From: Patulibacter minatonensis DSM 18081
GTDB lineage: Bacteria; Actinomycetota; Thermoleophilia; Solirubrobacterales; Solirubrobacteraceae
Direction of reading: 5' to 3'
DNA length: 64,000 nucleotides
NCBI RefSeq assembly: GCF_000519325.1
Contig: NZ_KI912613.1
Location: 1,223,369 to 1,287,368, forward strand
The position numbers and the translations under genes were made by a program. Below the pieces are notes generated by a model, which did not search any database, had not been told where the DNA came from, and saw only the letters and a list, made by a program, of their open reading frames with translations. Shown here piece after piece: positions 38,893 through 39,694 of the stretch. The stretch's first letter is position 1, and each line of letters begins with the position of its first letter.

Positions 38893-38921
38893 TCGACCCC
38901 GTCGGAGGGCCCTGCTAGGTT
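38893..38921 (+). promoter_or_regulatory. Promoter of the putative RNA gene
   Basis: TCGACC (38893-38898), a 17-base spacer and TAGGTT (38916-38921) predict a start near 38928. No start codon follows for an ORF with normal codon use. Confidence 0.45.
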
Positions 38922-38927
38922 CGGAAC

Positions 38928-39175
38928 CACTGCACCAGAGAAAGGAGGTGGTCCGAATCTACGACAGTAATTCCGGGACTCAGGAGGTGGCCGTCGTCTG
39001 ACGACGGTCATCCGGGAGGTCGGTGACGCAGACCGCGTCACCAGCCGATCGAGGGTCTGCCCTGGTCCCAGCGGATACGCACCCGTGTTACTGGCACGGT
39101 GGGGAGCGGAACCTCGGTTCGGGATCACCCCCGGCACTCTCAGCGCGGCGTCCTTCGGGGCGCCGCGCGTCGTTG
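38928..39175 (+). ncRNA. Putative structured non-coding RNA (~245 nt), unassigned family
   Basis: The stretch has its own promoter and a strong terminator but no credible gene. Hairpins include 38991-38997/39001-39007 (7 bp), 39021-39028/39034-39041 (8 bp) and 39110-39114/39117-39121 (5 bp). Near the 5' end, AGAAAGGAGGTGGTCC (38939-38954) is complementary with one G-U pair to the conserved 3' end of 16S rRNA. A second GGAGGTGG lies at 38983-38990. The only long frame through it uses TTA, CGA, AGG and CCT codons, which real genes here avoid. It could be a known family that I cannot name from memory. Confidence 0.5.
39143..39168 (+). terminator. UUCG-capped terminator hairpin
   Basis: An 11-bp stem with one T-G wobble (39143-39153 with 39158-39168) closes on the stable tetraloop TTCG with the C-G closing pair. 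GTCGTTGTGG follows. The next promoter begins 20 bases later. Confidence 0.65.
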
Positions 39176-39187
39176 TGGGGCACGTTC

Positions 39188-39217
39188 TTGACCCTGCGCC
39201 GACCGCGCCCGTAGGGT
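39188..39217 (+). promoter_or_regulatory. Promoter of the SRPBCC gene, leaderless
   Basis: TTGACC (39188-39193), an 18-base spacer and TAGGGT (39212-39217) are followed by 6 bases and the GTG at 39224. This is one of the clearest -35/-10 pairs in the window. Confidence 0.65.
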
Positions 39218-39223
39218 CGGCCG

Positions 39224-39694
39224 GTGCCGAAGCCCGTGCCCGTGACCGTGACGGCGACCGCGAAGGTCCCGCCGCAGCGGTGCTTCGACGCGATCATCCC
39301 GATCGACCTCACGGCGATGATGCAGGGCTACGGTCCGCTGCCGGCCGTCAGCGGCGTCCGCGACCAGGTCGGGCCCTGGGACACGCCCGGCTCCACGCGC
39401 GTCGTCGAGCTCGCCGACGGCAACGAGACGCCCGAGCGGATCGTCGCCGTCGCGCAGCCCGAGGCCTTCCACTACCGCGTCGGCCCGTTCACCGGCCCGC
39501 TCGGTCGGCTCGTCGCCCACGTCGACGGGTCGTTCCTCTTCGACGCGACCGCGGACGGCGGCACCGTCGTCAGCTGGACCTACGCGTTCCGCCCGCGCCG
39601 CGGCGGGAGCCTCCCGGTCCGGGGCCTCGCACCGCTGTGGCGCCGGTACGCGACGCAGTCGCTGCAGCGCGCGGTGGCGATCGCCGAGGCCTGA
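39224..39694 (+). CDS. SRPBCC/START-like ligand-binding protein
   Basis: The 156-residue protein has the helix-grip pattern of polyketide cyclase-like proteins: a beta strand with TVTATAKVPPQRCFDAIIPID, a central GPWDTPGSTRVVELADG, and a long C-terminal helix (LAPLWRRYATQSLQRAVAIAEA). Such proteins bind hydrophobic ligands; the ligand here is unknown. It starts with GTG and no ribosome site, in line with its leaderless promoter. Confidence 0.8.
   Translation: MPKPVPVTVTATAKVPPQRCFDAIIPIDLTAMMQGYGPLPAVSGVRDQVGPWDTPGSTRVVELADGNETPERIVAVAQPEAFHYRVGPFTGPLGRLVAHVDGSFLFDATADGGTVVSWTYAFRPRRGGSLPVRGLAPLWRRYATQSLQRAVAIAEA

What the first reader, a model, noticed from the sequence alone, without database searches (positions are those of the whole stretch)
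38893..39178. Independent transcription unit that looks like a new structured RNA gene
Seen: a promoter (TCGACC-17-TAGGTT), about 245 nt with several hairpins, then an 11-bp UUCG-capped terminator, followed by the separate promoter of the next gene. The only long frame through it uses TTA, CGA, AGG and CCT codons, unlike genes here. Inference: a stable non-coding RNA is expressed between gyrA and the SRPBCC gene. It could belong to a described family that I cannot match from memory.
Basis: partly seen in the sequence, partly recalled or inferred. Interest (0 to 1): 0.82.

Follow-up and report, generated by a model that had tools for sequence, protein, structure and literature searches.

The report
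Ribosome-reading RNA gene beside gyrA
The stretch after gyrA is a real, free-standing RNA gene related to a catalogued but unexplained bacterial RNA (Ms_IGR-5), and comparing about 180 relatives from three phyla shows that it carries a tiny, always in-frame reading frame woven into its folds, so it looks built to be read by ribosomes rather than to be non-coding.

Summary
38893-39176 (Patulibacter, Solirubrobacterales) has the stated promoter, a ~245-nt folded transcript and an 11-bp UUCG-capped terminator, conserved across the order, mostly downstream of gyrA.

It is a divergent homologue of Rfam RF02471 (Ms_IGR-5). The window itself scores only 19 bits (cut-off 45), but relatives at the matching locus score 34-38 bits full length, and a model built without its genus finds it at E=8e-15. 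The family is not purely non-coding. In 160 non-redundant relatives an in-frame start codon follows a very long Shine-Dalgarno sequence in 99%, and a stop lies exactly 15 nt after the GAG of GAGGTG in 159 (TAG/TGA/TAA, never TGG). N-terminal amino acids are not conserved, so translation itself appears to be what is selected. The ORF's 3' end covaries with a distal strand, its middle with a hairpin loop. The same design occurs in genomes of the Acidobacteriota and Spirochaetota groups.

Best reading: an autonomous, ribosome-operated RNA switch. Its output is unknown; a translation-capacity sensor or 30S sink is my leading guess. A published Ribo-seq study reports ribosome reads on mycobacterial homologues.

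The parts
38893..38921 (+). Promoter: -35 TCGACC (38893-38898), 17-nt spacer, -10 TAGGTT (38916-38921); predicted start of RNA about 38928-38932
   Evidence: Sequence; TANNNT at the same distance from the SD in 134/160 homologues vs 3 in a control window
38929..39176 (+). The RNA gene, about 245 nt
   Evidence: Promoter to terminator; fold z -3.6; conserved in relatives; profiles from outside the genus and outside the order hit only here in the window at E about 1e-14 and 1e-12; R1 E=7.8e-15
38939..38954 (+). Extended Shine-Dalgarno AGAAAGGAGGTGGTCC, complementary over 16 nt (one G-U) to the genome's own 16S 3' end GGATCACCTCCTTTCT
   Evidence: 16S tail read; duplex -29.9 kcal/mol, the strongest site in the 64 kb on either strand; AAGGAGGTGRTCC conserved in relatives
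38957..39001 (+). Micro-ORF, ATC start (non-AUG), 14 codons IYDSNSGTQEVAVV, TGA stop
   Evidence: Frame, start and stop conserved in 160 non-redundant homologues; no amino-acid conservation of N-terminal codons
38975..38979 (+). GGGAC inside the micro-ORF: 5' strand of a predicted pseudoknot
   Evidence: Covaries with the GTCC hairpin loop, z -6.6; weaker version z -4.1
38984..38989 (+). GAGGTG, second anti-SD-complementary hexamer, ending exactly 9 nt before the stop codon
   Evidence: Same spacing in 159/160 and in 18 of 18 further homologues from the Spirochaetota/Acidobacteriota groups
38986..39012 (+). Proximal hairpin, 12 bp, with the stop codon at its loop; competes with the distal helix
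   Evidence: MFE structure; ORF end x proximal strand covary, z -11.8
39064..39069 (+). GGTCCC: 3' strand of the predicted pseudoknot
39120..39129 (+). CGGGATCACC: distal strand, partner of GGTGG(CCG) at 38986-38993 or of the SD; resembles the 16S 3' end
   Evidence: Distal helix covaries, z -15.2 with an anchor chosen without regard to pairing. The exact strand in this genus is assigned by eye
39143..39176 (+). Intrinsic terminator: 11-bp UUCG-capped stem (39143-39168) and T-containing tail
   Evidence: conserved in the genus; a strong hairpin at the corresponding place in relatives

Best explanation
A free-standing RNA gene, a divergent homologue of Ms_IGR-5 (RF02471), that works as a ribosome-operated switch. 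SHOWN by sequence comparison: an independent promoter and terminator; an extreme SD; a 12-15 (up to 19) codon ORF kept in frame from start to stop; covariation of the ORF's 3' end with a distal strand and with a proximal strand, and of its middle with a hairpin loop. INFERRED: 30S subunits are captured by the 16-bp SD; a ribosome reads the short ORF, in the window from a weak AUC start; while it sits at the stop codon it covers the GAGGUG-to-stop segment and opens the distal helix and pseudoknot; when ribosomes are scarce or slow the RNA refolds. Because no particular gene follows and the RNA has its own terminator, the output must be the RNA itself. My leading guess is a sensor or sink of free 30S subunits; the alternative output is exposure of the CACC/GUCC strands for pairing with other RNAs.
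For: Homology: RF02471 hits full length the matching locus in relatives (G015 37.8 bits, G025 36.3 bits; L015 34.1 bits); profiles without the genus, or without most of the order, hit only here in the window at 1e-14 and 1e-12; R1 7.8e-15, and it is the only R1 match in the genome. Translation: start in frame 99% vs 0% and 4% in the other frames although SD-to-GAG distances vary by all remainders of 3; stop TAG 125, TGA 27, TAA 7, TGG 0 vs 21 expected; Spirochaetota/Acidobacteriota group TAG 13, TAA 5; ribosome footprints on MS_IGR-5 homologues in M. abscessus and M. smegmatis (PMC4974804). Structure: permutation z -15.2 and -6.6, -11.8 proximal, controls 0 to -1.2. Translation rather than peptide: 6 synonymous vs 48 non-synonymous codon changes in N-terminal codons, random expectation 20% synonymous. 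Free-standing: neighbours differ between clades (gyrA/HNH, Fur/THAP4-type heme-binding, class IV aminotransferase, MsrA/metallo-beta-lactamase, M24 peptidase, PALP).
Against: No expression, ribosome or phenotype data for this organism. The window scores below the RF02471 cut-off (19 vs 45 bits). Permutation z-scores are not p-values, as relatedness is not modelled, though control segments with the same relatedness gave about 0. Footprints on an RNA complementary to the 16S tail could partly be 30S binding without elongation. No direct evidence for a sensor or sink. In the window genus the distal strand is assigned by eye.
Confidence: 0.55

Rival explanations
1. An ordinary trans-acting base-pairing sRNA; the SD-like sequence and ORF are incidental or serve only to protect the RNA.
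For: Filed as an sRNA in Rfam; northern-detected in M. smegmatis according to PMC10454040; expressed in S. lividans (PMC8079986) and as an sRNA transcription unit in S. avermitilis (PMC8780764); single copy with its own terminator.
Against: Does not explain the fixed frame, the TAG/TGA/TAA interchange without TGG, or the start codon kept in frame through indels.
Confidence: 0.15
2. A gene for a functional micropeptide of 12-19 residues (xTxEVxxx-stop).
For: T, E and V are near-invariant across three phyla groups.
Against: Those residues are forced by GGAC/GAC and GAGGTG, which pair in the RNA; GAG and GTG codons almost never change to synonyms; N-terminal codons show no synonymous excess.
Confidence: 0.1
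3. A translation attenuator or leader for the next gene, or a processed 3' end of the gyrA message.
For: Close behind gyrA in this order; an SD, short ORF and alternative hairpins are the anatomy of attenuators.
Against: Own promoter and terminator; the next gene often lies on the other strand; neighbours change between clades while the element does not.
Confidence: 0.08
4. A 30S trap that is bound but hardly translated: the long SD titrates subunits and the ORF only limits how long a ribosome stays.
For: 16-bp duplex of -29.9 kcal/mol, strongest in the window; near-cognate starts in about 22% of homologues.
Against: Covariation inside the ORF and the exact stop position point to elongation and termination mattering. 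It overlaps with the best explanation and is separated from it only by experiment.
Confidence: 0.12

Closest known systems
Rfam RF02471, Ms_IGR-5 ('Actinobacteria sRNA')
   Same: Full-length match at the matching locus in relatives; same 5' SD block, GGAC..GAGGTG block, distal CACC strand, late hairpin and terminator
   Different: The window is below the curated score (19 vs 45 bits); Rfam lists it as a non-coding sRNA of Actinobacteria, its printed consensus structure shows neither an ORF nor the distal helix or pseudoknot found here, and related RNAs occur in two further phyla
Rfam RF01867, CC2171 (alphaproteobacterial sRNA)
   Same: Its consensus begins GAAAGGAGGUGAUCC, like this RNA's SD block, and ends in a hairpin
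   Different: Only 18.6 bits here (cut-off 75); no CC2171 sequence could be read, so an ORF could not be looked for
Leader-peptide attenuators (trp-type; recalled, not tested)
   Same: SD, very short ORF, alternative helices that a ribosome would switch
   Different: No regulated downstream gene; own terminator; no run of one kind of codon
Long-SD sensing of ribosomes, as at Flavobacterium rpsU (recalled, not tested)
   Same: An unusually long SD as a possible sensor of ribosome state
   Different: There it is the mRNA of a ribosomal protein; here a free-standing RNA
tmRNA (recalled)
   Same: An RNA with a short reading frame inside pseudoknots
   Different: No tRNA-like part; the ORF starts from an SD and ends in its own stop

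Membership tests
RF02471 Ms_IGR-5 | Score at or above the gathering cut-off (45 bits) | tested here: not met
   19.0 bits, E=0.044 over 701 bases; none in the whole window at gathering
RF02471 Ms_IGR-5 | Homology to accepted members through intermediates | tested here: met
   Relatives at the matching locus 34-38 bits over model 1-184; profiles lacking the genus E about 1e-14
RF02471 Ms_IGR-5 | Full-length architecture: SD block, GGAC/GAGGTG block, distal CACC strand, GTCC hairpin, terminator | tested here: met
   distal strand in the window genus assigned by eye
RF02471 Ms_IGR-5 | Expressed as a separate small RNA | not testable with these tools
   Shown for other members in PMC8079986, PMC8780764 and PMC10454040; no data for this organism
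RF01867 CC2171 | Score at or above the gathering cut-off (75 bits) | tested here: not met
   18.6 bits in window and genome
Leader-peptide attenuator | A conserved regulated gene directly downstream | tested here: not met
   Downstream genes differ between clades and are often convergent
Peptide-coding small gene | Amino-acid-level (synonymous-excess) conservation | tested here: not met
   6 synonymous vs 48 non-synonymous N-terminal codon changes

The most novel reading that the evidence does not exclude
Ms_IGR-5 is one lineage of an old, multi-phylum class of autonomous, ribosome-operated RNA switches: a stand-alone transcript with a maximal SD and a micro-ORF whose translation, not its peptide, flips a pseudoknotted RNA that reports on or buffers the free-30S pool. 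CC2171 of alphaproteobacteria may be a further branch.
Probability: 0.35. Interest if true: 0.85.

Novelty: new variant of a known kind. Interest (0 to 1): 0.62.

Why it matters
An RNA family filed as a non-coding actinobacterial sRNA carries a translated micro-ORF with fixed geometry, and the same design occurs in genomes of the Acidobacteriota and Spirochaetota groups. That makes its unknown function directly testable by start/stop mutants and Ribo-seq in laboratory mycobacteria and streptomycetes. If the switch reading is right, it would be an attenuator-like device without a downstream gene, acting on or reporting translation capacity. Rfam's family boundaries and consensus structure would also need revision.

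Tried and rejected
Rfam at gathering score: nothing here. Promoter/terminator scanner: none, E. coli-like rules. First covariation test with an unrestricted downstream region: the pseudoknot did not show (H2 percentile 0.52); it appeared only after the region was narrowed, so it is the weaker helix. In one search the H2 energies carried a default value for one empty region; one search repeats the test without it. The duplex-located distal sites sometimes fell in GC-rich stems, hence the anchored repeat. The peptide as the product: rejected on codon changes. Phage origin: no viral contig matched the pattern. Weak hits in the Acidobacteriota sample (E > 1e-3) may include antisense 16S and are not counted as shown. 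The original IGR-5 paper is not held. Literature searches for the peptide motifs found nothing relevant.

Full report
OBSERVATION. The RNA folds at -125.5 kcal/mol, better than all 200 dinucleotide shuffles (z -3.6). The flanks are gyrA upstream, then a polyketide-cyclase/SRPBCC-type gene (Pfam PF10604) and a convergent HNH gene downstream. The organism is a Patulibacter: the contig of genome G007, which the tool calls same genus, has the length and the element of a Patulibacter MAG contig.

CONSERVATION. The interval matches 54 of 61 relatives. In the genus it aligns over nearly its whole length; further out the best-conserved block is ACCAGAGAAAGGAGGTGGTCC ... GGGACYCWGGAGGTG. In most of the loci examined in the order it lies downstream of gyrA, and in many the next gene is on the opposite strand. 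In the genus, RNAalifold finds 66 pairs, 13 with changes on both sides.

IDENTITY. No Rfam family reaches its cut-off; the best sub-threshold match is RF02471 Ms_IGR-5, 19 bits. The same family hits, over its full model, the matching locus in other members of the window's family: G015 37.8 bits, G025 36.3 bits, L015 34.1 bits. Profile HMMs built without the genus, and without most Solirubrobacterales, hit only this place in the 64 kb, at 1.2e-14 and 1.1e-12. A sequence model R1 from 58 homologues outside the genus gives 7.8e-15 in the window and a single match in the genome. I therefore call it a divergent homologue of Ms_IGR-5, below the curated score.

THE MICRO-ORF. Across 160 non-redundant homologues (Mycobacterium, Streptomyces, Nocardia, Micromonospora, Acidimicrobiia and others), an in-frame start lies 7-13 nt after AGGAGG in 99% (77% ATG/GTG/TTG, 22% CTG/ATC/ATA/ATT), against 0% and 4% in the other frames. 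The distance from SD to GAG takes all three remainders modulo 3, so the start moves with the indels. A stop lies exactly 15 nt after GAG in 159 of 160: TAG 125, TGA 27, TAA 7, and TGG never, although 21 would be expected if the two positions varied independently. In the window the start would be ATC at 38957 and the stop TGA at 38999-39001. The collection pattern contained the SD and GGAC..GAGGTG, so those two blocks are partly ascertained; start, stop and downstream parts were not in it.

TRANSLATION, NOT PEPTIDE. In 48 independent close pairs the N-terminal codons changed 6 times synonymously and 48 times not; random change predicts 20% synonymous. The near-invariant T, E, V follow from GGAC/GAC and GAGGTG, which pair in the RNA.

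THE RNA FOLD. With the distal strand chosen by a neighbouring sequence anchor rather than by pairing, each species' ORF 3' end fits its own distal strand better than foreign ones: permutation z -15.2. The ORF middle (GGAC) fits its own GTCC hairpin region, z -6.6. The ORF end also fits the strand just after the stop, z -11.8, so two exclusive foldings exist. Control segments gave about 0 and -1.2. These are not p-values.

RIBOSOME CONTACT. The genome's own 16S tail is GGATCACCTCCTTTCT; AGAAAGGAGGTGGTCC pairs with all 16 nt at -29.9 kcal/mol, the strongest site on either strand of the window. A second anti-SD hexamer, GAGGTG, ends 9 nt before the stop in almost every homologue. Significant ribosome reads on MS_IGR-5 homologues were reported in M. 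abscessus and M. smegmatis (PMC4974804). Expression of members is reported in PMC8079986, PMC8780764 and PMC10454040.

DISTRIBUTION. R1 finds it in 119 of 296 Actinomycetota genomes, 13 of 247 genomes of the phylum of a Spirochaetia MAG and 63 of 247 of the phylum of an Acidobacteria MAG (the weak tail is unverified). The 18 further loci read from these two groups have the SD, an in-frame start and a stop (TAG 13, TAA 5) at the fixed place, and several reach 38-50 bits with RF02471. The phylum labels rest on record titles of MAGs. No viral contig matched.

MECHANISM. Shown: autonomous gene, extreme SD, selected translation of a micro-ORF, alternative helices inside it. Inferred: a translating or terminating ribosome opens the distal helix and pseudoknot, so the fold reports ribosome supply. 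Since neighbours change between clades, the output must act in trans or be the capture of ribosomes itself. I put about 0.3 on the sensor/sink output specifically.

NOVELTY. The family is known and unexplained; the translated micro-ORF, the revised fold and the multi-phylum range were not found in the papers I could search, which exclude most subscription journals.

Noticed in passing
window 39120-39129: The distal strand CGGGATCACC resembles the 16S rRNA 3' end GGATCACC; it could pair with the RNA's own SD as well as with the ORF end, and in the single-sequence MFE it pairs with the SD.
   Followed up: partly
L225-L228: Acidobacteriota-group homologues have a longer micro-ORF (19 codons) with a second GAGGTG/EV copy upstream of the usual one.
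   Followed up: no
L019: One Solirubrobacterales relative lacks the fixed stop; its frame runs on for seven more codons.
   Followed up: no
window 38934-39010 vs RF01867: CC2171 of alphaproteobacteria starts with the same 16S-complementary block (GAAAGGAGGUGAUCC); it may be a related RNA, but no sequence could be fetched.
   Followed up: partly
RF02471 consensus: Rfam's printed consensus structure omits the distal helix and pseudoknot found here, and the family name limits it to Actinobacteria.
   Followed up: yes
window 39188-39224: The SRPBCC-type gene at 39224 has a promoter (TTGACC-18-TAGGGT) ending only 7 nt before its GTG, so its message is probably leaderless.
   Followed up: no
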